From a virus: a stretch of 21,065 nucleotides of DNA. The notes beneath the pieces were generated by a model that saw nothing but the letters and a program-made list of their open reading frames with translations, was not told the DNA's origin and ran no database searches. Both the position numbers and the translations under genes were made by a program. Of this stretch, positions 2,137 through 14,766 are shown piece by piece (the stretch's first letter is position 1; each line of letters starts with the position of its first letter). The DNA lies in IMG/VR virus record IMGVR_UViG_3300043446_000411, positions 1-21,065 of that record; one strand, 5' to 3'.

Positions 2137-2141
2137 AGGTG

Positions 2142-2549
2142 ATGGCTGATGAGGCTTATCAGGCATGGTTAAAGAAGTACGGTGTCAGAGAATCTAATGA
2201 TTACGATACTTATGCAGCGTTTAAAGCTGGGCTGACCCCTAGCGAAAACGGGCACCTTCCAGATACGTTCAAGCTGCCTAATCACATTACCTATTCGACT
2301 GAAAGCACTGCATCACAGAAAAAAGGTGCGGCTCCTGCGGGTAGATGGGAAGGATCAGATAAGGATGGGTGGACATTCTATGCCTCACCCACAAACATCA
2401 AGAATGCTGGTGGAGTTAAAGAACTTCAGGAATACTTCCGTTCCCACGAGAAAGGCGTGAAGTTGATACTTCCAGAGGCTACTCCTCCCAGTACTCCTGT
2501 TTCTGTACCGGATAACTACCGTGCAGGCGGCAGGGTGAGAATGATTTAA
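2142..2549 (+). CDS. hypothetical protein ending in AGGRVRMI
   Basis: A 135-residue protein of unknown function between terminase and portal. The N-terminal third (AYQAWLKKYGVRESNDYDTY) looks like a small helical module that measures residue length against a Tyr-rich repeat. The middle (GRWEGSDKDGWTFYASP, about residues 67-85) is aromatic and beta-like, and a Pro/Ser/Thr-rich linker leads to a short basic end, AGGRVRMI. That end resembles the first half of the C-terminal module found in the basic small proteins at 10497-11919. The start is the ATG at 2142, with AGGAGA 5-6 bases upstream; an in-frame GTG at 2139 is the alternative. The stop overlaps the next start as TAATG. I do not recognise a function. 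A terminase accessory or minor virion role is possible from position only. Confidence 0.8.
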   Translation: MADEAYQAWLKKYGVRESNDYDTYAAFKAGLTPSENGHLPDTFKLPNHITYSTESTASQKKGAAPAGRWEGSDKDGWTFYASPTNIKNAGGVKELQEYFRSHEKGVKLILPEATPPSTPVSVPDNYRAGGRVRMI

Positions 2550-2818
2550 TGATTACTCAGCAGCACATGGGTCGATATAGCCTGCTCAAACGCCTCACTG
2601 CACAAGTTGGCGGGGATGAGGAGATGGCTAAAAAGATTCTTATACAGCGGGGCCATATGCGCGAAGATGGTACGCTGACCCCCGAAGGCGCTTCCCGAGA
2701 CAGGATGACAGCAGAAGAGCGAGCGAAAGATCGCGCTGTCAAACTGGGCAAGGGAAGAAAAGTTAAAGATTATGTATATAATCCCGCCACAAACCGGGCG
2801 AGATTGAGGAGCCGATAA
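2549..2818 (+). CDS. small basic hypothetical protein
   Basis: An 89-residue, Lys/Arg-rich protein squeezed between its neighbours by TAATG stop/start overlaps at both ends (2547-2551 and 2816-2820), so it is probably translated by coupling. The sequence has a helical N-terminal part (LLKRLTAQVGGDEEMAKKILIQRG), a central segment (TPEGASRDRMTAEERAKDRA) and a basic C-terminal tail around YNPATNRARLRSR. Similar short proteins occur between terminase and portal in uncultured aquatic phages, but I know no assigned function. A small packaging or portal-associated factor is a positional guess only. Confidence 0.8.
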   Translation: MITQQHMGRYSLLKRLTAQVGGDEEMAKKILIQRGHMREDGTLTPEGASRDRMTAEERAKDRAVKLGKGRKVKDYVYNPATNRARLRSR

Positions 2819-5412
2819 TGAGCATCGACAAGGCTTTGAACCGTGCCCCGTCCGGGCTGGCTGATCTGTTGGGAGTTAGTGACTCCGGTCCCGCGTTGGA
2901 GATTGAGATCGAAGACCCGGAAGCTGTGCGGATAAACGCAGGCGGGATGGAGATCAACCTTGGTCCTGATGAGCAAGCGGAGGGCGACTTCAGCGACAAC
3001 TTGGCTGAGACGATGGACGAGTCGGCACTCATGTCGATGGCCGAGGAGTTGGCGGGTGATATTGAGAATGACCTTGCCAGTCGCAAAGACTGGGAGGAGA
3101 CCTACGTTGAAGGTCTGAAGTTGATGGGCCTCAAGTATGAGGAGCGGATGGAGCCGTGGAGTGGGGCCTGTGGTGTAGTCCACCCCATGATTACCGAGGC
3201 TGTTGTCCGGTTCCAAGCCGAGACGGTGATGGAGACATTCCCGTCAAGTGGTCCCGTGATGACCAAGATTATCGGCAAGGAGACGCCGGAGAAGCTGGAG
3301 GCAGCGGAGCGGGTCAAGGAGGACATGAACTATCAGCTTACGGAGCGGATGATTGAGTACCGCCCGGAGCATGAGAAGATGCTGTGGAACCTGCCCGCGA
3401 CAGGTTCGGCGTTCAAGAAAGTCTACTATGACCCGAGCCTTGGGCGTCAGGTGGCGGTGTTCATTCCCGCTGAGGATGTGGTGCTGCCCTACGGCGTGTC
3501 CGACATCTATATGTGCCACCGCGTCACTCACGTGATGCGTAAAACCAAGAATGAAATCAAGAAGTTGCAGCAGGCTGGGTTCTACCGGGACATCGACCTG
3601 CCCGACCCTGACAAGAACCGCAGTGATATAAAGAAGGCAAAAGACAGCGAGACGGGATTCAGCGACATCCATGATGAACGCTACACCCTGTACGAGGCGC
3701 ACGCCGATCTCAGCCTTGACCCGGAGGATGAAGAAGGGATCGCCCTGCCGTATGTCGTGACGCTCATCAAGGGGTCAAACGATGTGCTGGCAATTCGCCG
3801 TAACTGGCGGGAAGACGATGATCTGCGTCTCAAGCGTCAGCACTTCGTCCACTATCAGTACATCCCCGGCTTTGGTTCGTATGGCTTCGGTCTGTTCCAC
3901 CTGATCGGTAACTTCGCCAAGTCAGCTACCTCGCTGACCCGTCAGCTTGTGGACGCCGGTACGCTGTCTAACTTGCCGGGCGGACTGAAGTCCCGGAGCC
4001 TCAGGATCAAGGGAGATGACACGCCGATCTCCCCCGGTGAATTCCGGGATGTGGACGTAGGCTCAGGCACCATCCGGGACAGCATCCTGCCCCTTCCTTA
4101 TAAAGAGCCTAGCCAGACTCTGCTCCAGTTGCTGGGCAACATCATTGAGGATGGGCGACGGTTCGCCGCGACGGCAGACGTGAAGATCAGCGACATGGGC
4201 TCGCAAGCCCCTGTCGGCACGACGCTGGCGATACTGGAGCGACAGCTTAAACCACTGTCGGCTGTTCAGGCGCGAATTCACTACACGTTGAAGCAGGAGC
4301 TTAGGCTCCTTGCAGAGATCATCCGTGACTATTCGGACGACTCATACAGCTACGAGCCCGAGACCGGCACGGCTAAAGCCAAGAAAGAAGACTATGAGGA
4401 TATCGATATCCTGCCGGTGTCTGATCCCAACGCGGCCACGATGGCGCAGCGGATCGTGCAGTACCAAGCCGTCATTCAGATGGCACAGATGGCCCCGGAC
4501 ATTTATGACTTGCCGGAGCTTCACCGGGGGATGCTGAACGTCTTGGGGATCAAGAACGCTGCCAAGCTCGTGCCACTGAAAGATGACATCAAGCCGATGG
4601 ACCCCGTGACGGAGAACGCACGGGCACTGAAAGGTGAGCCCGTCAAAGCCTTCCTGCATCAGGACCACACCGCACATATCGCGGTGCATAACGCCATGAT
4701 GCAAGACCCCATGATTCAGCAGAAGATTGGGCAGAATCCTCGCGCACAGCAGATCATGGCGGCGTTGCAGGATCACATCACGGAACACGTGGCGTTTGAA
4801 TATCGTCAGCAGATTGAGTCCCAGCTTGGCCTGCCGTTGCCCCCGCCGGATGAAGAGTTGCCGCCTGAAGCGGAGAATGCGCTGTCTGCCATGATGGCGC
4901 AGGCCGGTCAGCAGCAGTTGCAGGAGTCGCAGCAGCAAGCACAGCAGCAACAGGCCCAGCAGCAAGCACAAGACCCCGTGCTTCAGATGCAGCAGCAGGA
5001 GCTTCAGATCAAGCAGCAGCAAGTGCAGATCGAGCAGCAGAAAGCTCAGACTGATATGCAGAAGTCTATGCAGGAGCTTGAGTTCCGCCGCGAGCAGATG
5101 GAGCGGGAGCTTCAGTTGAAGCAGGAACAGATGGAGCGCGACTACGAGCTTAAGCGTGAGCAGATGGAGCGGGACTACGAGTTCAAGCGGGAGCAAATGG
5201 AGGCAACTTCTCTGCGTGAGGGCCTGAAGATGGGTCTGGCTAAAGAGAAGGATGACGCCACTCATATGCGTGAAGGGATGCGCCTTGGGCTTGAGAAAGA
5301 CCGCGAGGACGCTAATCAGACAAGAGAAGGTCTCAAGTTGGGCATGAGCTACAACGCTCCTGCTAAAGAAGCACCGCAAAAAAGTAAACAACCCCCTGAC
5401 AAAAAGGAGTGA
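2818..5412 (+). CDS. portal protein with long coiled-coil C-terminal extension
   Basis: The portal is the dodecameric ring at the capsid vertex through which DNA enters and leaves. This 864-residue protein is of the large P22-like class. Residues about 70-600 look like the portal body: a helical start, WSGACGVVHPMITEAVVRFQAE (near 114-135), a Gly/aromatic stretch GFGSYGFGLFHLIGNFAKSA (351-370), and a stem-like region around 430-500. After about residue 690 it changes to a Gln-rich low-complexity stretch (698-745). Then come three 11-residue repeats beginning EQMER (759-791), and two full and one partial copies of an 18-residue repeat beginning REG (800-843). The extension is longer than in textbook portals and is probably a coiled-coil barrel or a flexible internal tail. 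The gene starts within a TAATG overlap. Confidence 0.9.
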   Translation: MSIDKALNRAPSGLADLLGVSDSGPALEIEIEDPEAVRINAGGMEINLGPDEQAEGDFSDNLAETMDESALMSMAEELAGDIENDLASRKDWEETYVEGLKLMGLKYEERMEPWSGACGVVHPMITEAVVRFQAETVMETFPSSGPVMTKIIGKETPEKLEAAERVKEDMNYQLTERMIEYRPEHEKMLWNLPATGSAFKKVYYDPSLGRQVAVFIPAEDVVLPYGVSDIYMCHRVTHVMRKTKNEIKKLQQAGFYRDIDLPDPDKNRSDIKKAKDSETGFSDIHDERYTLYEAHADLSLDPEDEEGIALPYVVTLIKGSNDVLAIRRNWREDDDLRLKRQHFVHYQYIPGFGSYGFGLFHLIGNFAKSATSLTRQLVDAGTLSNLPGGLKSRSLRIKGDDTPISPGEFRDVDVGSGTIRDSILPLPYKEPSQTLLQLLGNIIEDGRRFAATADVKISDMGSQAPVGTTLAILERQLKPLSAVQARIHYTLKQELRLLAEIIRDYSDDSYSYEPETGTAKAKKEDYEDIDILPVSDPNAATMAQRIVQYQAVIQMAQMAPDIYDLPELHRGMLNVLGIKNAAKLVPLKDDIKPMDPVTENARALKGEPVKAFLHQDHTAHIAVHNAMMQDPMIQQKIGQNPRAQQIMAALQDHITEHVAFEYRQQIESQLGLPLPPPDEELPPEAENALSAMMAQAGQQQLQESQQQAQQQQAQQQAQDPVLQMQQQELQIKQQQVQIEQQKAQTDMQKSMQELEFRREQMERELQLKQEQMERDYELKREQMERDYEFKREQMEATSLREGLKMGLAKEKDDATHMREGMRLGLEKDREDANQTREGLKLGMSYNAPAKEAPQKSKQPPDKKE
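4909..5052 (+). repeat. CAG/CAA-rich low-complexity tract in the portal gene
   Basis: Codons for residues about 698-745 are dominated by CAG and CAA, giving a Gln-rich stretch. Mixed Gln codons and interspersed Ala, Leu and Ile codons mean it is not a pure trinucleotide expansion. Confidence 0.8.
5092..5346 (+). repeat. two successive in-frame repeat arrays in the portal tail
   Basis: The first array (5092-5190) is three 33-base units encoding 11 residues each, all beginning EQMER, with a partial fourth copy EQMEA. The second (5215-5346) is two full 54-base units and one partial unit encoding 18 residues, each beginning REG and followed by a Leu/Met-Gly-Leu/Met core. The 11-residue period is typical of hendecad coiled coils; 18 residues corresponds to five helical turns. 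Confidence 0.85.
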
Positions 5413-8126: not shown

Positions 8127-9059
8127 ATGGCTATTTCACGTTCCCAGCTTCTCAAGGAACTCCTGCCCGGTCTGAACGCACTGTTCGGCATGGAGTACTC
8201 CCGCTACGGCGAAGAGCATAAGGAAATCTACGACGTTGAGACCTCTGAGCGTAGCTTTGAAGAGGAGACGAAACTCTCCGGCTTCGCGGCTGCTCCGGTC
8301 AAAACGGAAGGCGCGGCGATTGCGTATGACAACGCGCAAGAGGCGTGGACCGCTCGCTACACGCACGAAACCATTGCTCTTGGTTTCTCCATCACCGAAG
8401 AGGCGGTGGAAGACAACCTGTATGACAGCCTGTCGGCTCGTTATACCAAGGCTCTGGCCCGTGCTATGGCGTACACCAAGCAGGTAAAAGCTGCGTCGAT
8501 CCTGAACAACGGGTTCAACGGTAGCTACCTTGGCGGTGACGGCACCACCCTGTTCGGTAACAACTCCTCCAGCACTCGTGTTGGTCACCCGCTGGTTAGC
8601 GGCGCTGTTAACTACAACAGCCCCTCGACCGGTGTTGACCTGAACGAGACGGCGCTGGAAGCAGCGGTTATCCAGATCGCAGCGTGGACCGATGAACGTG
8701 GTCTGCTGATCGCAGCCAAGCCACGTAAACTCATCATTCCTCCGGCCCTGATGTTCGTAGCCAAGCGTCTGCTTGATACGGAGCTTCGTGTCAGCACCAC
8801 TGACAACGACATCAACGCGCTGAAGCAGATGGGTGCTATCCCGGAAGGCTACACGGTCAACCACTTCCTGACCGACACCAACGCGTGGTTCCTCACCACT
8901 GATGTTCCCAACGGCCTGAAGCACTTCGTCCGTGCCCCGATGAATACATCGATGGACGGCGACTTCGATACCGGCAACGTCCGGTACAAGGCTCGTGAGC
9001 GTTACAGCTTCGGCTGGAGCGATCCGCTGGGCATCTGGGGTTCGCCCGGTTCGACCTGA
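8127..9059 (+). CDS. major capsid protein
   Basis: A 310-residue protein in the classic position after scaffold and before a strong terminator. It carries features of HK97-fold coats: an N-terminal helix (SRSQLLKELLPGLNALFGMEY), an E-loop-like segment (ERSFEEETKLSGFAAAPVK), a long spine-like helical region (ARYTHETIALGFSITEEAVEDNLYDS to KQVKAASILNNGF) and an A-domain-like portion with KPRKLIIPPALMFVAKRLL. The pattern recalls coats loosely related to Mu gpT. Codon use is strongly biased to C- and G-ending codons, as expected for a very highly expressed gene. A good Shine-Dalgarno AAGGAG lies about 9 bases before the ATG. It is expected to form the icosahedral shell and may be the client of the GroES-like protein. 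Confidence 0.88.
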   Translation: MAISRSQLLKELLPGLNALFGMEYSRYGEEHKEIYDVETSERSFEEETKLSGFAAAPVKTEGAAIAYDNAQEAWTARYTHETIALGFSITEEAVEDNLYDSLSARYTKALARAMAYTKQVKAASILNNGFNGSYLGGDGTTLFGNNSSSTRVGHPLVSGAVNYNSPSTGVDLNETALEAAVIQIAAWTDERGLLIAAKPRKLIIPPALMFVAKRLLDTELRVSTTDNDINALKQMGAIPEGYTVNHFLTDTNAWFLTTDVPNGLKHFVRAPMNTSMDGDFDTGNVRYKARERYSFGWSDPLGIWGSPGST

Positions 9060-9770: not shown

Positions 9771-10061
9771 ATGAGTATGCAAACTGATATTAAAAGTGTC
9801 TATCTGGGTACAACCGGGACACTTGTAAGCTATCGCACGCGTATCAGAAGTCTTGTTGTAGTATCTGGTGCTGCCGCTGGCAGCATCATTTTGCGGGATG
9901 GCGGTGCATCTGGAACAGTGGAGTTTCAGATGGACATAGCAGCTTCGGCTGCTGGTACGGGCTCCACCAACAGTGTGTACATCCCAGATGACGGGATTCT
10001 GTTTGAGACGGACGTACACGCTACTTTGTCTGGCTGCACGGTGACAGCATTCTATGCCTAA
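9771..10061 (+). CDS. small beta-rich structural protein
   Basis: A 96-residue protein with alternating short strands and no enzyme motif: SVYLGTTGTLVSYRTRIRSLVVVSGAAAGSIILRD-type segments, then VEFQMDIAAS and a strand near IPDDGILFETDVHATL. GGGAG lies about 6-10 bases upstream of the ATG. The sequence resembles small decoration-like proteins found next to capsid genes in aquatic phages. It overlaps the next start by 8 bases (ATGCCTAA at 10054-10061), so the two are probably co-translated. Function is inferred only from composition and position. Confidence 0.65.
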   Translation: MSMQTDIKSVYLGTTGTLVSYRTRIRSLVVVSGAAAGSIILRDGGASGTVEFQMDIAASAAGTGSTNSVYIPDDGILFETDVHATLSGCTVTAFYA

Positions 10062-10308
10062 GTCTCCTGCTTGGACTCGTAAAGAAGGTAAGAACCCTGC
10101 TGGAGGCTTGAATGCCAAAGGCAGGGCTTCGTACAACAAGGCTAACCCCGGCAAGCCGGGCCTGAAGGCTCCGCAGCCTGAAGGCGGCCCTCGCCGCGAC
10201 TCATTCTGCGCTCGGATGAGCGGCATGAAAAAGAAGCTCACCAGCAAGAAGACGGCAAATGATCCGAATTCCCGGATCAACAAAAGTCTTCGGGCGTGGA
10301 ATTGCTAG
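10054..10308 (+). CDS. conserved basic phage protein (DUF6321-like)
   Basis: An 84-residue protein rich in Lys, Gly, Pro and Arg, probably largely disordered. Recognisable blocks are SPAWTRKEGKNPAGGLNAKG (4-23), ASYNKANPG (25-33), FCARMSGMKKKL (51-62) and a final NDPNSRINKSL-x(3)-NC, with Cys at 52 and 84. I believe this is the conserved domain of unknown function catalogued as DUF6321, but this was not checked. It opens the run of small basic proteins that continues to 14097. Basic, cysteine-bearing small proteins may bind nucleic acid or the inside of the capsid; neither is shown. Confidence 0.75.
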   Translation: MPKSPAWTRKEGKNPAGGLNAKGRASYNKANPGKPGLKAPQPEGGPRRDSFCARMSGMKKKLTSKKTANDPNSRINKSLRAWNC

Positions 10309-10317
10309 GAGATTCTC

Positions 10318-10497
10318 ATGGCTGAGAAATGGATTCAGAAAGCTATCAAGAAGCCCGGCGCTCTTCGTGCGTCTTTGGGCGTGAAAGCGGGAAAAACCAT
10401 CCCGCCCAAGAAACTCGCCGCCGCAGCTAAGGCTCCCGGCAAAATGGGCCAGCGGGCACGTCTGGCTCAAACCTTTGCGAAAATGAGGAAAGGCTAA
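10318..10497 (+). CDS. very small strongly basic protein
   Basis: A 59-residue protein with 12 Lys and 4 Arg against a single Glu, a net charge of about +15. It starts MAEKWIQKAIKKPGALRASL and ends MGQRARLAQTFAKMRKG. AGGAG lies about 5-9 bases before the ATG, and the stop overlaps the next start as TAATG, which supports real translation. The sequence family is familiar to me from small proteins of uncultured phages. A DNA-condensing or internal virion protein is a reasonable idea based on charge only. Confidence 0.75.
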   Translation: MAEKWIQKAIKKPGALRASLGVKAGKTIPPKKLAAAAKAPGKMGQRARLAQTFAKMRKG

Positions 10498-10862
10498 TGC
10501 CCGCTCGACAGCCTGTTACAAATACGTCTGACGACGAAAATGACAACGAAGACGTACCCATGACGCCGGAACGGCGTAAATTTCTTGCGGAAATGGACGC
10601 TTCGGATAAAAAAGTACAAGATGAATACGACAAGCGGGCGCAACAACGACTGCGAGAAGAGCAAGATTACACCGTAAGCCCTGAAGTTGAGAAAAGACTT
10701 CGGCAGCAGGAAGAAGACGACAAGTTCCGTAGGGCTGCTGAAAGAGCCTTTGGCGAGAACCGCGGGGAGAACCGCTACGCTAAGGGCGGCAAAGTCAAAT
10801 CCACCAAGCGCCGTGGTGACGGCTGCTGCACTAAAGGCAAAACCAAAGGGAGATTCGTGTAA
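10497..10862 (+). CDS. charged helical protein with full C-terminal KGG...KGKT module
   Basis: A 121-residue protein of unknown function. Residues 1-25 are acidic and polar (SDDENDNEDVP). Residues 25-90 are very charged and probably helical. The last 28 residues (10776-10859) switch to the basic module YAKGGKVK, a short basic spacer, then GDGCCTKGKTKGRFV. The same module ends the next two proteins. The Cys-Cys pair is specific to this copy. The gene begins and ends with TAATG overlaps. Within the module, Gly-Arg is encoded GGG-AGA, which creates GGAG at 10849-10852, 9 bases before the next start at 10862. I infer a shared binding or sorting role for the module. Confidence 0.85.
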   Translation: MPARQPVTNTSDDENDNEDVPMTPERRKFLAEMDASDKKVQDEYDKRAQQRLREEQDYTVSPEVEKRLRQQEEDDKFRRAAERAFGENRGENRYAKGGKVKSTKRRGDGCCTKGKTKGRFV

Positions 10863-11644
10863 TGGCACGTAGTTATGAACCCGGCAGTTATAGGGATGCC
10901 ATTCAAAAACTTGGCGAACGCCAACAGAAAGAAATGGAGCAAAAACGCAATAGCCGTCCCGGCCCAGTTAAAGAAGGCGGGATAAGCGTAGCTCAACGGT
11001 TTAAAAACTGGCTGATGGACGATCGCCTGCCTGAATATATGCGGCAGCCCGGCCAAGATGAGTATGGACGTAGTAAGAAAGCAGTGGCAAAAGCTGCCGC
11101 TGAAGAGGCTAAGAAAAATCCGCCTTCACAAAAAAGTCGGTCTTATAGCCCTAACGATATTCGGATGCGAAAAATTACTCCATCCAAACCGCCTTCCCAA
11201 GTTACGCCGCGTAGCGTTGGTGTTTCTGTCGGTGAGGACGCAACGAAAAGTATTCGTGCTTCTGCTTCCGCGCCTAAACCCGCTACCCCCGCAAAACGGT
11301 CAGAAGTGGTAATGGGCACGGCCCCCGCGAACAAATCTGAGCGTCCCGATCCGGTCAAGAAAGTACCGCAGGCTACGCCTACGGTATCCAAACCTGCTGC
11401 ACCGCGTAACTACTCTACGGAAGCCGCAGATAAGCTGAAAGGGCTGGGTCTTGATGAAGACAACGCAGTAATGAAAAGACTGCGTGAGCGTTCGGCAATG
11501 AGCGCAAAAGAGCGTGATGAAGCTCCGAAGTTTGAGTCGAAGTATGCGGACAAGCTCAACAAAGCTCTGGGTTTCGCCAAAGGCGGTCACGTAAAAGCCA
11601 ACGGCATTGCACGTAAAGGTAAAACTCGCGGGAGACTGATCTAA
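10862..11644 (+). CDS. disordered basic protein with full C-terminal KGG...KGKT module
   Basis: A 260-residue protein of unknown function, the longest member of the tagged set. Residues 1-80 are basic and partly helical (SYRDAIQKLGERQQKEMEQK; FKNWLMDDRLPEYM). Residues 80-185 are Pro/Ser/Lys/Thr-rich, probably disordered. Residues 190-235 look helical (STEAADKLKGLGLDEDNAVM; YADKLNKALG). The end, FAKGGHVKANGIARKGKTRG followed by RLI (11573-11641), is the shared module. As in the gene before, the Gly-Arg near the end is GGG-AGA, giving GGAG at 11631-11634, 9 bases before the next start at 11644. TAATG overlaps flank the gene on both sides. The clear split into a disordered body and a fixed tail suggests the tail carries the common function. 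Confidence 0.85.
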   Translation: MARSYEPGSYRDAIQKLGERQQKEMEQKRNSRPGPVKEGGISVAQRFKNWLMDDRLPEYMRQPGQDEYGRSKKAVAKAAAEEAKKNPPSQKSRSYSPNDIRMRKITPSKPPSQVTPRSVGVSVGEDATKSIRASASAPKPATPAKRSEVVMGTAPANKSERPDPVKKVPQATPTVSKPAAPRNYSTEAADKLKGLGLDEDNAVMKRLRERSAMSAKERDEAPKFESKYADKLNKALGFAKGGHVKANGIARKGKTRGRLI

Positions 11645-11919
11645 TGGAAAAGATGTCTGGCAAAATGGCTGCGTTCTTCGCCAAGAAAGGCAAGACCAAA
11701 CTCGCTGCTCACGAGCGGCGTGAGGCTGCTGGTAAGGAAAAGGACACTCGCAAGATTGCGAAGCAGGAAGAGCGTGCGCTGAAAGGCGCTCCCAAGAACC
11801 TGAAGCGGTACGAGGAGAAGGAACACAAGGAGATGGGGTTCCGTAAGGGTGGTCACGTCAAAGCTGACGGTGTAGCCCGCAAGGGTAAGACTGCTGGCAC
11901 GCAGATTCGGATGAAGTAA
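11644..11919 (+). CDS. small basic protein with C-terminal KGG...KGKT module
   Basis: A 91-residue, highly charged protein. The N-terminal part (SGKMAAFFAKKGKTKLAAHE) already contains a KKGKT that resembles the module. The central part is a charged helix (ERREAAGKEKDTRKIAKQEE). The end carries RKGGHVKADGVARKGKTAG (11842-11898) with a different final tail, TQIRMK. At 14 residues shared with the module of the preceding gene, 9 codons differ by synonymous changes, so the similarity is maintained at protein level. The start lies in a TAATG overlap preceded by GGGAGA. Function unknown. Confidence 0.85.
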   Translation: MEKMSGKMAAFFAKKGKTKLAAHERREAAGKEKDTRKIAKQEERALKGAPKNLKRYEEKEHKEMGFRKGGHVKADGVARKGKTAGTQIRMK

Positions 11920-11920
11920 G

Positions 11921-12058
11921 ATGCGTCCGTGTCGTGGTATGGGGGCTATTGCTCCACAGAAAAAACCACGTAAGACCCGTTTGAGTCGGAAGGATTCTCC
12001 TCAACTAATAGATGTTTATGCCAAGGGCGGCACCTGTCGCCCTTGTAACAAGAGGTAA
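11921..12058 (+). CDS. tiny Cys-containing basic protein ending in AKGG-T-CRPC
   Basis: A 45-residue protein starting one base after the previous stop codon. It begins MRPCRGMGAI, is followed by a Lys/Arg run (QKKPRKTRLSRKDS) and ends VYAKGGTCRPCNKR. It has 13 basic residues against two Asp. YAKGG matches the first half of the module in neighbouring proteins, but here it leads into a C-x-x-C pair. With Cys at 4, 39 and 42 it might bind metal weakly, but it is short. The MRPCRGMG opening is one I recall from small aquatic phage proteins. There is no strong Shine-Dalgarno; translation is probably coupled to the gene before. Confidence 0.7.
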   Translation: MRPCRGMGAIAPQKKPRKTRLSRKDSPQLIDVYAKGGTCRPCNKR

Positions 12059-12063
12059 GTGAC

Positions 12064-12711
12064 GTGGCAGATAATTCCTACTACGGCGGTGGGTTTGAAG
12101 GTGATGGCTACGGCGGTGGCTTTGGTGGCTACGGCGGCGGTTATCCGCGTCAAATGATGGGCTACGGCGGTGGCTACGGCGGCGGTTATCCGCGTCAAAT
12201 GATGGGCTACGGCGGTGGTTATGGCGGTTACGGCGGCTATGGTGGCGGCGGTGGCTACATGGGCATGATGCGTCCCCAGCCGATGGGCGGCTACATGGGC
12301 ATGATGCAGGGCGGTGGTAACCCCTACTATGCTGGTGGCTACGGCGGTTACGGCGGCGGTCGCGGTGATTACGGCGGCATGATGGATCGTATGGCGTATA
12401 TGCCCCAATATCAGCAGCAATATCCCGCGTACCAGTCAAATATCTTCCGTGGCATGGGCGGCTATGGCAGTGGTATAGGTGGCTTGTTCGGCGGTATGGG
12501 TCAGCCGACCAACTACAAACCCACTACTACGCCTTCTACGGGAACGACACCTACCACTCCCTCGACGGGTGCGGTTGCTAACGTAGCGGGTCTCCCGCAG
12601 AACCCGACGCCTCCCACGTCGCCTACTTCTCCGACGCCTCCTCCACCCCCGGCACCTCCGGCAATGCCGACGCCTCCCGGTGGACCGTCTAATCCGGGCA
12701 CGATGATCTGA
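12064..12711 (+). CDS. Gly/Tyr-rich low-complexity protein with Pro/Thr-rich tail
   Basis: A 215-residue protein in two parts. Residues 1-146 are dominated by Gly, Tyr and Met, with GYGGGY-type repeats, YPRQMM twice, and MGMM twice. Residues about 150-213 are Pro/Thr/Ser-rich (TSPTSPTPPPPPAPPA). No enzyme motif, membrane segment or charge cluster is seen, and it is probably disordered. Gly/Tyr-rich regions can condense or be sticky, but that is inference. It starts with GTG; GAGG at 12052-12055, across the previous stop, is 8 bases upstream. The reading frame is real: mixed Gly codons (GGC, GGT) still encode a steady protein pattern, and it lies in the same operon. It may be a virion surface or internal protein. 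Confidence 0.8.
   Translation: MADNSYYGGGFEGDGYGGGFGGYGGGYPRQMMGYGGGYGGGYPRQMMGYGGGYGGYGGYGGGGGYMGMMRPQPMGGYMGMMQGGGNPYYAGGYGGYGGGRGDYGGMMDRMAYMPQYQQQYPAYQSNIFRGMGGYGSGIGGLFGGMGQPTNYKPTTTPSTGTTPTTPSTGAVANVAGLPQNPTPPTSPTSPTPPPPPAPPAMPTPPGGPSNPGTMI
12124..12218 (+). repeat. 45-base tandem repeat in the Gly/Tyr-rich gene
   Basis: Bases 12124-12173 and 12169-12218 are an identical 50-base match with a 45-base period (15 codons), containing the GGYPRQMMGYGG-type unit. Exact identity over 50 bases points to a recent slippage duplication or conversion. Confidence 0.9.
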
Positions 12712-12716
12712 CCGGT

Positions 12717-13400
12717 ATGACTACTTCCGGCACCACATCGTTTGATCTTGATCTCTCCGAGATAATCGAAGAGGCGTTTGAACGCTGCGGTGCCGAGTTA
12801 CGGTCTGGTTATGATTTTCGTACCGCACGGCGATCTCTGAACCTGCTATTTCAGGATTGGGCTAACCGGGGCGTAAACCTGTGGACGTTGGAGCAAGGCA
12901 CTGTAGCTCTCACGCCGGGCACGGCTACCTACTCGCTGCCAGTAGATACGGTTGATCTTCTGGATCACGTTATCCGCACAGGCAGTGGAACGACGCAAGC
13001 TGATATAACAATCTCGCGTATCAGTTCGTCTACCTACGCCAGCATCCCGACGAAGACTGCTACCGGACGACCCATCCAAGTATGGGTCAAGCGGCTTGAA
13101 TCCCCTGAGATTACGGTGTGGCCCACACCGGACTCTTCGCAGACGTATACGTTCGTGTACTGGCGACTGCGGCGCATTCAGGACGCCGGGTCTGGTACTA
13201 ACACGATGGACGTACCGTTTAGGTTCCTTCCCGCGCTTGTCTGTGGTCTGGCTTACTATCTGTCTATGAAAGTACCTGACGCGATGGTACGGATGGAAGT
13301 CCTGAAGGCCCAGTACGACGAGGCGTGGGCTAACGCTGCCGAAGAAGACCGTGAGAAGGCCCCTGTGCGGTTTGTGCCGCGCTATATGTTCGGCAACTAA
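12717..13400 (+). CDS. head-to-tail adaptor, P22 gp4-like
   Basis: A 227-residue protein resembling the tail accessory factor/adaptor that binds under the portal in P22-like phages. The N-terminal helices (DLDLSEIIEEAFERCGAELR, RTARRSLNLLFQDWANRG) and the pattern TLEQGTVALTPGTATYSLP are typical. A beta-rich middle with RPIQVWVKRLESPEITVWPTP precedes a helical end (DVPFRFLPALVCGLAYYLSM; MEVLKAQYDEAWANAAEEDR). Adaptors form the ring that closes the portal channel and receive the tail. The ATG at 12717 has no strong Shine-Dalgarno. Its position well after the capsid genes is normal for these phages. Confidence 0.75.
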   Translation: MTTSGTTSFDLDLSEIIEEAFERCGAELRSGYDFRTARRSLNLLFQDWANRGVNLWTLEQGTVALTPGTATYSLPVDTVDLLDHVIRTGSGTTQADITISRISSSTYASIPTKTATGRPIQVWVKRLESPEITVWPTPDSSQTYTFVYWRLRRIQDAGSGTNTMDVPFRFLPALVCGLAYYLSMKVPDAMVRMEVLKAQYDEAWANAAEEDREKAPVRFVPRYMFGN

Positions 13401-13403
13401 ACC

Positions 13404-13793
13404 GTGGCAAACCAATTTGCCATAGGCAAAAAGGCGATAGCGCAGTGTGATCGCTGCGGGTTTCGCTACAAGCTGAAGCAACTCAAAACCCTGACTATCA
13501 AGACCAAGAACGTCAATATCTTGGTCTGTCCAACGTGCTGGGAGCCTGACCATCCCCAACTTCAACTGGGTATGTATCCAGTCAACGATCCACAAGCCCT
13601 GCGTAACCCGCGTCGAGATACAACCTACCAAGTCTCTGGTACACTTGCTAACGGAAACTTGGGAGAAGGCAGCAGGGTCATTGAGTGGGGCTGGAATCCT
13701 GTGGGTGGCAGTACAAACCCGGATCAGCTTCTTACCCCCAATAGCCTTCGTATGACCCTTTATGTAGGGTCAGTTACTGTAGCTGTGACATAG
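13404..13793 (+). CDS. zinc-ribbon protein in the adaptor region
   Basis: A 129-residue protein with an N-terminal treble-clef or zinc-ribbon-like pair, C15-x-x-C18 and C42-x-x-C45 (CDRCG and CPTCW), followed by the basic linker LKQLKTLTIKTKN between the pairs. After ten residues containing EPDHPQ comes a beta-rich C-terminal half with GSRVIEWGWNPVGG and a hydrophobic end. The spacing supports binding of one zinc ion. Such ribbons bind nucleic acid or protein partners. No nuclease residues (HNH His/Asn) are visible. The start is GTG with little Shine-Dalgarno signal. Placed between two adaptor genes, it may be a minor head-closure protein, but that is not shown. Confidence 0.75.
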   Translation: MANQFAIGKKAIAQCDRCGFRYKLKQLKTLTIKTKNVNILVCPTCWEPDHPQLQLGMYPVNDPQALRNPRRDTTYQVSGTLANGNLGEGSRVIEWGWNPVGGSTNPDQLLTPNSLRMTLYVGSVTVAVT

Positions 13794-13802
13794 GAGAGAA
13801 CC

Positions 13803-13943
13803 ATGAAAGGTAAATCGTGTGGTGGCAAAATGAGCAAGGGCTATGCTGCTGGTGGCAAGACCTCCATGCAGATGCTCAAGATGGGCCGGGGCCTTGCTAA
13901 AGTAGCTAACCAGAAGAAGACCGGCGGTCGCCGGGGGAGTTAA
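13803..13943 (+). CDS. tiny Lys/Gly-rich basic protein
   Basis: A 46-residue protein with 9 Lys, 3 Arg and no acidic residue. It reads MKGKSCGGKMSKGYAAGGKT, then a short helix (MQMLKMGRGLAKVANQ) and a basic end, KKTGGRRGS. YAAGGKT resembles the first half of the C-terminal module in the 10497-11919 proteins. AGGAGAG lies 4-10 bases before the ATG, a strong Shine-Dalgarno that supports expression despite the size. The stop is followed closely by the next gene. Function unknown. Confidence 0.75.
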   Translation: MKGKSCGGKMSKGYAAGGKTSMQMLKMGRGLAKVANQKKTGGRRGS

Positions 13944-13944
13944 T

Positions 13945-14097
13945 ATGGCTACCACCAAGTACAACCAACCCAAGCCCAACAAGAATCCCTTGGGGCAGAC
14001 GGGGTATCCCCAGAAAGGCATGAAGACGACCGGGACCAAGACTCGCGGTAACGGTGCAGCCACTAAAGGGGTTACGGCTCGCGGACCTATGGCGTGA
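13945..14097 (+). CDS. tiny basic protein ending in the module's second half
   Basis: A 50-residue protein with 7 Lys, 2 Arg and no acidic residue, rich in Gly, Pro, Asn and Thr, hence probably disordered. The end RGNGAATKGVTARGPMA (14044-14094) matches the second half of the module in other proteins: compare RGDGCCTKGKTKG of the 10497 gene. It begins one base after the preceding stop codon, with GGGGAG just upstream inside the previous gene. Function unknown, but the shared ending ties it to the same protein group. Confidence 0.75.
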   Translation: MATTKYNQPKPNKNPLGQTGYPQKGMKTTGTKTRGNGAATKGVTARGPMA

Positions 14098-14103
14098 GTC
14101 GAT

Positions 14104-14766
14104 ATGAACTACACCCAACTGCAAGCCGCGATTGCTGGGTACGTCGAGAATCCTGATACGACGTTTGCAGCGCAAATTCCGACGTTCATTCGTCAGGCAG
14201 AGACTCGCATCTTCAACTCGGTGCAGTTTCCGTCGCTTCGGAAAAACGTGACGGGTACGGTTACTTCTGGCAACGCTTACCTTAGCTGCCCAGATGACTT
14301 CCTTGCAGTGTACTCCCTCGCGGTGATCGACGGCACCGGGGTGTATTCGTATCTTCTGAACAAGGACGTTAACTTCATCCGTGAGGCTTACACGTCCGCT
14401 ACGACCACGGGACTTCCCCGGTACTATGCGCTGTTCGGTCCGCAGTCTGCATCACCTACGGAACTGTCGTTTATTCTTGGTCCGACTCCGGGATCAGGTT
14501 ACACGATGGAGCTTCACTACTTCTTCTATCCGGAGTCGATTACCACTGCGGCTTCTGGGCAAACATGGCTGGGTGATAATTTTGATCCTGTTCTCCTGTA
14601 TGGCTCTCTTGTTGAAGCGTATACCTACCTGAAGGGCGAGCCTGACCTCCTGCAACTCTATGACGGGAAGTACAAAGAAGCCCTCACTATGGCGAAACGC
14701 CTTGGAGATGGTATGGAGCGTCAGGATGCTTACCGGTCTGGGCAGTTCCGGCAGCCGGTGAACTGA
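14104..14766 (+). CDS. phage adaptor / head-closure protein (SU10-adaptor-like)
   Basis: A 220-residue protein starting NYTQLQAAIAGYVENPDTTF, then IPTFIRQAETRIFNSVQFPSL, a pattern typical of the adaptor family that includes the phage SU10 adaptor. A beta-rich middle (GNAYLSCPDDFLAVYSLAV; LPRYYALFGP) and a long C-terminal helical segment (DPVLLYGSLVEAYTYLKGE; GKYKEALTMAKRL) follow. These proteins join portal to tail. With the gp4-like protein at 12717, this gives two adaptor-type proteins in one block. The ATG at 14104 is only weakly served by a Shine-Dalgarno and probably relies on coupling to the gene before. Confidence 0.75.
   Translation: MNYTQLQAAIAGYVENPDTTFAAQIPTFIRQAETRIFNSVQFPSLRKNVTGTVTSGNAYLSCPDDFLAVYSLAVIDGTGVYSYLLNKDVNFIREAYTSATTTGLPRYYALFGPQSASPTELSFILGPTPGSGYTMELHYFFYPESITTAASGQTWLGDNFDPVLLYGSLVEAYTYLKGEPDLLQLYDGKYKEALTMAKRLGDGMERQDAYRSGQFRQPVN

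What the first reader, a model, noticed from the sequence alone, without database searches (positions are those of the whole stretch)
10776..14097. A shared C-terminal module on otherwise unrelated small phage proteins
Seen directly: the proteins at 10497, 10862 and 11644 end in the same pattern, K-G-G-[KH]-V-K-x(1,6)-[DN]-G-x-[AC]-x-K-G-K-T-x-G, and the protein at 13945 ends in its second half (RGNGAATKGVTARG). The bodies of these proteins do not resemble one another. Between the 10862 and 11644 copies, 14 shared residues use 9 different synonymous codons, so the likeness is kept by selection on the protein rather than by recent duplication. Inference: the module is a tag or docking site recognised by one partner, such as a capsid-loading signal, a DNA-binding tail or a substrate mark for a protease. 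Similar endings are familiar from uncultured aquatic phages, but I know no assigned role.
Basis: partly seen in the sequence, partly recalled or inferred. Interest (0 to 1): 0.82.

Follow-up and report, generated by a model that had tools for sequence, protein, structure and literature searches.

The report
Shared end-tag on variable phage proteins
Uncultured aquatic phages put the same short protein ending on many otherwise unrelated small proteins made beside the capsid genes; it is probably a docking label that brings these proteins into the virus particle, although nobody has yet shown that they are packaged.

Summary
Three neighbouring window proteins end in one module, about [KR]-[AG]-[DN]-G-x-[AC]-x-[KR]-G-K-T-x-G. 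A profile built without the window's closest relatives finds them at E=1e-10, 1e-6 and 6e-4. It is a widespread tag of one group of Pam1/HTVC023P-like podoviruses (SU10-type adaptor). In freshwater relatives, 438 tagged bodies fall into 161 clusters; reversed ORFs give 0 hits at 15 bits, against 437 real ones. In 15 long genomes with both boundaries mapped, tags lie between capsid and adaptor genes, bar one weak copy just past the adaptor. The 13945 protein carries a second tag type that marine relatives put on other variable proteins, exactly at the C-terminus. DUF6321 protein exists with and without the tag, so the tag is detachable. Synonymous codons vary, so selection acts on the protein. 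Best explanation: a terminal docking signal for virion cargo, working like T4's capsid-targeting sequence. Packaging itself is inferred. A minority of copies are not at the C-terminus, including one small family with an N-terminal copy.

The parts
10776..10859 (+). Type A tag, C-terminus of protein 10497-10862 (YAKGGKVKSTKRRGDGCCTKGKTKGRFV)
   Evidence: Profile E=1.4e-10
11573..11641 (+). Type A tag, C-terminus of protein 10862-11644 (FAKGGHVKANGIARKGKTRGRLI)
   Evidence: Profile E=1e-6
11839..11916 (+). Type A tag with a longer end, C-terminus of protein 11644-11919 (FRKGGHVKADGVARKGKTAGTQIRMK)
   Evidence: Profile E=5.7e-4
14035..14094 (+). Type B tag, C-terminus of protein 13945-14097 (TKTRGNGAATKGVTARGPMA)
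   Evidence: Freshwater type B profile against marine type B profile: hhalign probability 97.6%, E=3e-12; type B profile matches once in 17 of 18 long relatives
10497..10862 (+). Tagged protein 1, 121 aa; body charged, no family found
10862..11644 (+). Tagged protein 2, 260 aa; body low-complexity, no family found
11644..11919 (+). Tagged protein 3, 91 aa; body basic, no family found
13803..13943 (+). Small protein at the place of a 61-74 aa family whose relatives carry the type A core at the N-terminus; in the window only the C-terminal ..MLKMGRGLAKVAN.. part is recognisable
10054..10308 (+). DUF6321 protein, untagged here; 12 of 93 relatives carry a type A tag added after the ..RAWNC end
11921..12058 (+). 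45 aa protein ending AKGGTCRPCNKR; has only the KGG part of the module
8127..9059 (+). Major capsid protein, upstream boundary of the tag block; 76-86% identical in 15 long relatives
12717..13400 (+). SU10-type adaptor 1, downstream boundary of the tag block
14104..14766 (+). SU10-type adaptor 2, directly downstream of the type B protein
2818..5412 (+). Portal protein; in marine relatives type B genes flank this gene

Best explanation
The module is a short docking signal at the end of a flexible chain. It gives a family of fast-changing small late proteins a common binding site on one conserved head-assembly component (portal, scaffold or inner capsid surface), so that they are built into the procapsid and carried in the virion, probably next to the portal, and possibly ejected with the DNA. 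Shown here: one module on many unrelated bodies; selection on the protein sequence; restriction to the portal-capsid-adaptor gene block; a detachable module; sister lineages with their own version in the same register from the C-terminus; a tail predicted to be unstructured in the one case folded. Inferred: that the proteins are in virions, which partner is bound, and ejection.
For: (1) 437 profile hits of 15 bits or more against 0 in reversed ORFs; 161 body clusters among 438 tagged proteins, next to a capsid protein 76-86% identical in 15 long genomes. (2) In the 15 genomes of 59-67 kb where capsid, DUF6321 and adaptor 1 were all mapped, the 1-6 type A copies lie between capsid and adaptor 1 and nowhere else in the genome, except one weak extra copy 0.4 kb past the adaptor. 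All 443 type A and 138 type B proteins with a window homologue nearby share a strand with one. (3) DUF6321 proteins 76-96% identical to one reference occur with (12) and without (81) the tag, which starts right after the universal ..RAWNC end; AlphaFold2 gives that tail pLDDT 34-35 against about 64-78 for the body. (4) Two body modules link to virion genes elsewhere. The N-terminal KQHxFM module (40 of 44 carry the tag) matches residues 1-42 of 'virion structural protein' families and the start of CBB_322, found in purified CBB virions with 30 peptides (PMC5259590). The TFxWxGKxY module (20 of 20 tagged) occurs in a T7-like phage protein encoded between the portal and capsid-assembly genes. 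(5) Type A and type B share R(-16), G(-13), A(-11), R/K(-9), G(-8) counted from the C-terminus. (6) Variable tag positions (-10, -3, -2, -1) are more alike within a genome than between genomes, p<=0.006, as expected for one shared partner, although duplication or gene conversion would also do this.
Against: No virion proteomics exists in the material read for any phage of this group. The CBB link rests on a 42-residue module on the opposite end of the protein. The tag is strongly basic (mean net charge +4.6 type A, +3.6 type B), which also suits DNA binding. Sixteen of 339 proteins carry the core at the N-terminus and 29 have it 16-35 residues from the end, so a free C-terminus is not required in all cases. 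No partner was identified.
Confidence: 0.5

Rival explanations
1. The tag is a nucleic-acid-binding tail: a glycine-rich basic peptide that binds packaged or replicating DNA. Any packaging would be a by-product of DNA binding, with no protein receptor.
For: Net charge of the last 17 residues is +4.6 (A) and +3.6 (B); 195 of 198 type A tags contain the Walker A string [AG]x4GK[ST]; bodies are also basic.
Against: The most invariant positions are not basic: G-13, G-8, T-6, D-14 and A-11 in type A, G/A/F in type B. The fixed distance to the C-terminus and the within-genome likeness suit a specific protein partner better. The GKT string is absent from all 94 type B tags.
Confidence: 0.22
2. The tagged proteins are a diverged paralogous family in which the C-terminus simply evolves slowest. 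They act in head or neck assembly (scaffold-like or chaperone-like) and are not packaged.
For: Genes are tandem and next to structural genes; shared residues within a genome use the same codon more often than codon usage predicts (0.53 against 0.36), so some copies arose by duplication or conversion.
Against: DUF6321 gains or loses the tag cleanly; tags sit on several unrelated body modules (KQHxFM, TFxWxGKxY, DUF6321), one of which starts virion proteins of jumbo phages without the tag.
Confidence: 0.18
3. The ending is a processing or degradation signal cut by a protease during head maturation or turnover.
For: Terminal, exposed, predicted unstructured in the one case folded; T4 internal proteins lose their targeting peptide to a prohead protease (PMC9026906).
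Against: No Peptidase_S78 in 22 relatives searched whole, while controls ring; 16-22 conserved residues are far more than a usual cleavage site or degron. Other protease families were not searched.
Confidence: 0.07
4. The likeness is a DNA-level effect: a recombination seam or a translation signal at the gene end, not a protein feature.
For: The tag ends at the stop codon, and tagged genes overlap the next start in the window (10862 and 11644).
Against: Third codon positions of invariant residues are nearly as diverse as in the bodies (for example G-13: GGC 88, GGT 80, GGA 20, GGG 8); 10 of 15 shared residues in the window use different codons.
Confidence: 0.03

Closest known systems
T4 capsid targeting sequence (CTS) on internal proteins IPI, IPII, IPIII
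   Same: Short conserved terminal peptide on small basic, poorly conserved bodies; the CTS is thought to let T4-like phages load various proteins into the head (PMC9026906).
   Different: T4's CTS is N-terminal, about 10 residues, and removed by the gp21 protease. This tag is mostly C-terminal, about 16-28 residues, no S78 protease was found, and packaging is not demonstrated. No sequence relation is claimed.
Encapsulin cargo-loading peptides
   Same: From general knowledge: C-terminal peptides on unrelated proteins that dock inside an HK97-fold shell.
   Different: Encapsulin peptides are shorter and on enzymes; here the receptor is unknown and the bodies look disordered.
Podovirus ejection proteins and crAss001 cargo proteins gp45 and gp46
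   Same: Proteins stored in the capsid near the portal and ejected with DNA (PMC10172136); a few tagged bodies have an N-terminal membrane-helix-like stretch, and gp45 has a predicted one too.
   Different: No sequence similarity to gp45 was found even for a crAss-like protein in a similar gene position that holds the TFxWxGKxY module; ejection proteins are larger and are not known to share an end tag.
DUF6321 (PF19846)
   Same: Another basic module, found both as a stand-alone protein and at the end of long phage proteins.
   Different: A separate, longer domain; it is a carrier of the tag in 12 relatives and not the tag itself.

Membership tests
T4-type capsid targeting sequence | N-terminal position | tested here: not met
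   291 of 339 type A cores lie within 15 residues of the C-terminus; 16 are N-terminal; 141 of 141 type B hits are C-terminal
T4-type capsid targeting sequence | Removed by a phage prohead protease | tested here: inconclusive
   No Peptidase_S78 in 22 genomes; other protease families not searched
T4-type capsid targeting sequence | Common peptide on divergent small basic proteins | tested here: met
   161 body clusters, mean body net charge +0.085 per residue
T4-type capsid targeting sequence | Sufficient to bring a foreign protein into the head | not testable with these tools
   Needs a phage genetic experiment
Encapsulin cargo-loading peptide | C-terminal peptide on unrelated proteins | tested here: met
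Encapsulin cargo-loading peptide | Binds the inner face of an HK97-fold shell | not testable with these tools
   No complex prediction available; capsid gene is close by
Podovirus ejection proteins | Present in virions and delivered into the cell | not testable with these tools
   Only indirect: KQHxFM module on virion protein CBB_322
P-loop NTPase | Walker A within a P-loop fold with strand, helix and Walker B | tested here: not met
   Walker A string in 195 of 198 type A tags, but these end 5 residues after GKT, the tail is predicted unstructured in the one case folded, and the string is absent from type B
Pam1/HTVC023P-like podoviruses (host virus group) | Related portal, capsid and SU10-type adaptor genes | tested here: met

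The most novel reading that the evidence does not exclude
An abundant aquatic podovirus group uses an interchangeable terminal 'address label', with lineage-specific versions (type A in freshwater, type B in marine relatives), to load a rapidly turning-over set of small proteins into its heads and deliver them to host cells: a plug-in cargo system independent of the proteolytic targeting known from T4.
Probability: 0.35. Interest if true: 0.8.

Novelty: new variant of a known kind. Interest (0 to 1): 0.6.

Why it matters
If it is a capsid-loading signal, it would give a sequence rule for spotting virion cargo among the 'hypothetical proteins' that dominate aquatic phage genomes, and a terminal tag for loading chosen proteins into phage particles without a protease. 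The natural pairs of tagged and untagged DUF6321 proteins make the idea directly testable.

Tried and rejected
tblastn of the tag or of tagged proteins against cultured phages and plasmids gave nothing: short, low-complexity queries. Of the five cultured or named phage records scanned with the type A profile, it rang only in Pag-Yong1. Pfam and PADLOC scans of 133 tagged proteins gave only DUF6321 plus marginal single hits. Homology of the crAss-like cr107_1 protein holding the TFxWxGKxY module to cargo protein gp45 of crAss001 was tested and not found. A real P-loop NTPase was rejected. Conservation at DNA level was rejected by codon diversity. The HTVC027P transcriptome text did not mention these genes. 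Searches for a published description found none, but the library lacks most subscription journals. No solved structure matched the capsid or adaptor by phmmer.

Full report
What is in the window. The window is a 21,065-base IMG/VR virus record. Its order is small terminase (guess), large terminase, portal, GroES-like (by comparison with named relatives), putative scaffold, major capsid protein, cement-like proteins, DUF6321, the tag block, SU10-type adaptor 1, small proteins, type B protein, adaptor 2, and fibre. The nearest named relatives by portal and adaptor are Phage DSL-LC04, Pelagibacter HTVC023P and HTVC027P, Roseobacter CRP-901 and CRP-902, Planktothrix Pag-Yong1 and more distant Caulobacter phages.

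Checking the observation. The endings are as described. A profile made from 192 tags of other contigs, without the window's close relatives, ranks the four named proteins first of 381 window ORFs (E=1.4e-10, 1e-6, 5.7e-4, 0.017; next E=1). The codon argument holds: 15 shared residues, 10 with different codons. On 196 tags, third positions of invariant residues are nearly as diverse as in the bodies. Some within-genome pairs share codons more than codon usage predicts (0.53 against 0.36), so a part of the copies may be related by duplication or conversion.

How common and where. The tag profile finds 437 ORFs at 15 bits or more and none in reversed ORFs; 65 of 80 contigs chosen only by their adaptor gene carry it. 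Of 124 tag contigs, 121 hold genes homologous to the window, chiefly adaptor 1, its neighbour and DUF6321, so the tag marks one phage group. A tighter pattern matched only 4 contigs in genomes of 84,980 bacterial and archaeal species. Three are phage contigs in MAGs; the fourth is a Patulibacter contig whose end looks chimeric. All 18 viral records of 59-87 kb scanned whole have 1-6 copies. In the 15 where capsid, DUF6321 and adaptor 1 were all mapped, every copy lies between capsid and adaptor 1, except one weak extra copy 0.4 kb past the adaptor in G010. In the more distant marine G001 one copy lies beside DUF6321 and a second 3.3 kb away. Every tagged gene with a window homologue nearby shares a strand with one.

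Bodies vary, the end does not. 438 tagged bodies form 161 clusters with 124 singletons, whereas the neighbouring capsid protein is 76-86% identical in 15 long genomes. Bodies are rich in K, A, G and mostly match nothing. Three recurrent body modules exist. DUF6321 occurs in closely similar forms with and without the tag (12 of 93 tagged). The KQHxFM N-terminal module (40 of 44 tagged) matches the first 42 residues of two 'virion structural protein' families and of jumbo-phage proteins including CBB_322, which was seen in CBB virions with 30 peptides (PMC5259590). The TFxWxGKxY module (20 of 20 tagged) also occurs in a T7-like phage between portal and capsid-assembly genes, in crAss-like phages and in microviruses.

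A second tag in sister lineages. The 13945 ending (KTSGIKxRGxGAATKGxxARGPMA) matches once in 17 of 18 long relatives (twice, the second weakly, in the other), as a rule downstream of adaptor 1. It is homologous to the ending RGxGAAxRGxxFxG[VI][FKRY] of marine HTVC023P-type phages (hhalign probability 97.6%, E=3e-12; both profiles include the two HTVC023P sequences, which helps the score). 116 of 117 matches end exactly two residues after FxG, and 117 of 120 contigs hold window homologues. The profile finds 141 ORFs at 12 bits with 0 in reversed sequence, all at the C-terminus, on 43 body clusters. Marine tagged genes flank the portal gene. Type A and type B share R(-16), G(-13), A(-11), R/K(-9), G(-8) counted from the end, but profile comparison is weak (probability 15-23%, P about 0.001), so their kinship is likely but unproven. 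Positions fixed in the search patterns are conserved by construction; the distance to the C-terminus is not.

Exceptions. Of 339 type A proteins with a clear core, 200 end exactly 5 residues after GKT, 291 within 15, 29 at 16-35, 16 have the core at the N-terminus of a small protein encoded beside the type B protein, and 3 are internal. The module is therefore terminal but not always C-terminal.

Mechanism. A detachable end module under protein-level selection, attached to rapidly replaced bodies, found only in the head-and-neck gene block, and more alike within a genome than between genomes at variable positions, is what a shared receptor would produce. AlphaFold2 on a tagged DUF6321 protein leaves the tag unstructured, as expected for a peptide that orders on binding. 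The head context and the CBB_322 link point to virion cargo. T4's capsid targeting sequence is the best working analogue (PMC9026906), but the tag fails its N-terminal criterion, so it works like it and is not a member. The receptor, packaging and ejection are inferred. DNA binding is the main rival, because the tag is basic and type A contains a Walker A string; the string is missing from type B.

Scores. Interest 0.6: the tag is real, strongly conserved, widespread in an abundant virus group and easily tested, but its role is still indirect.

Noticed in passing
phages OQ594354, OL906435, PP438419 (L204): Three GenBank records of identical length (65,014 bp) with identical match scores are filed under three cyanobacterial hosts; they look like one phage, and the true host may be a shared contaminant bacterium.
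   Followed up: no
L209 1-2003: At the end of a Patulibacter MAG contig, an acyltransferase frame runs into a perfect type A tag; probably a chimeric assembly.
   Followed up: partly
window 10054-10308: DUF6321 is very conserved (over 500 phage records) and occurs alone or as the last domain of a 936 aa protein encoded near the terminase in a T4-like cyanophage; its role is unknown.
   Followed up: partly
window 12064-12711: A glycine-, tyrosine- and proline-rich low-complexity protein of 215 aa sits between the tag block and adaptor 1.
   Followed up: no
window 2139-2549: The protein between terminase and portal ends YRAGGRVRMI, reminiscent of a shortened tag; in marine relatives the same place holds type B tagged genes.
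   Followed up: no
L084:888-1370, L117:398-775, L062:3324-4271; phiKZ PHIKZ165.1; CBB gp322: The MPSxSxKQHxFM..AHNPxFAKKxGIxQSVGKEF module is shared by podovirus tagged proteins and jumbo-phage virion proteins; it may be an N-terminal virion module in its own right.
   Followed up: partly
L215 4942-7320; L216 2472-2765; L219 4998-5498: The F..AF..AR..G...F.WNGK.Y.T..A module recurs in crAss-like phages, microviruses and T7-like phages.
   Followed up: partly
freshwater tagged proteins: 147 of 447 tagged proteins end in cysteine, often as GG-x-C, and 143 end in valine.
   Followed up: no
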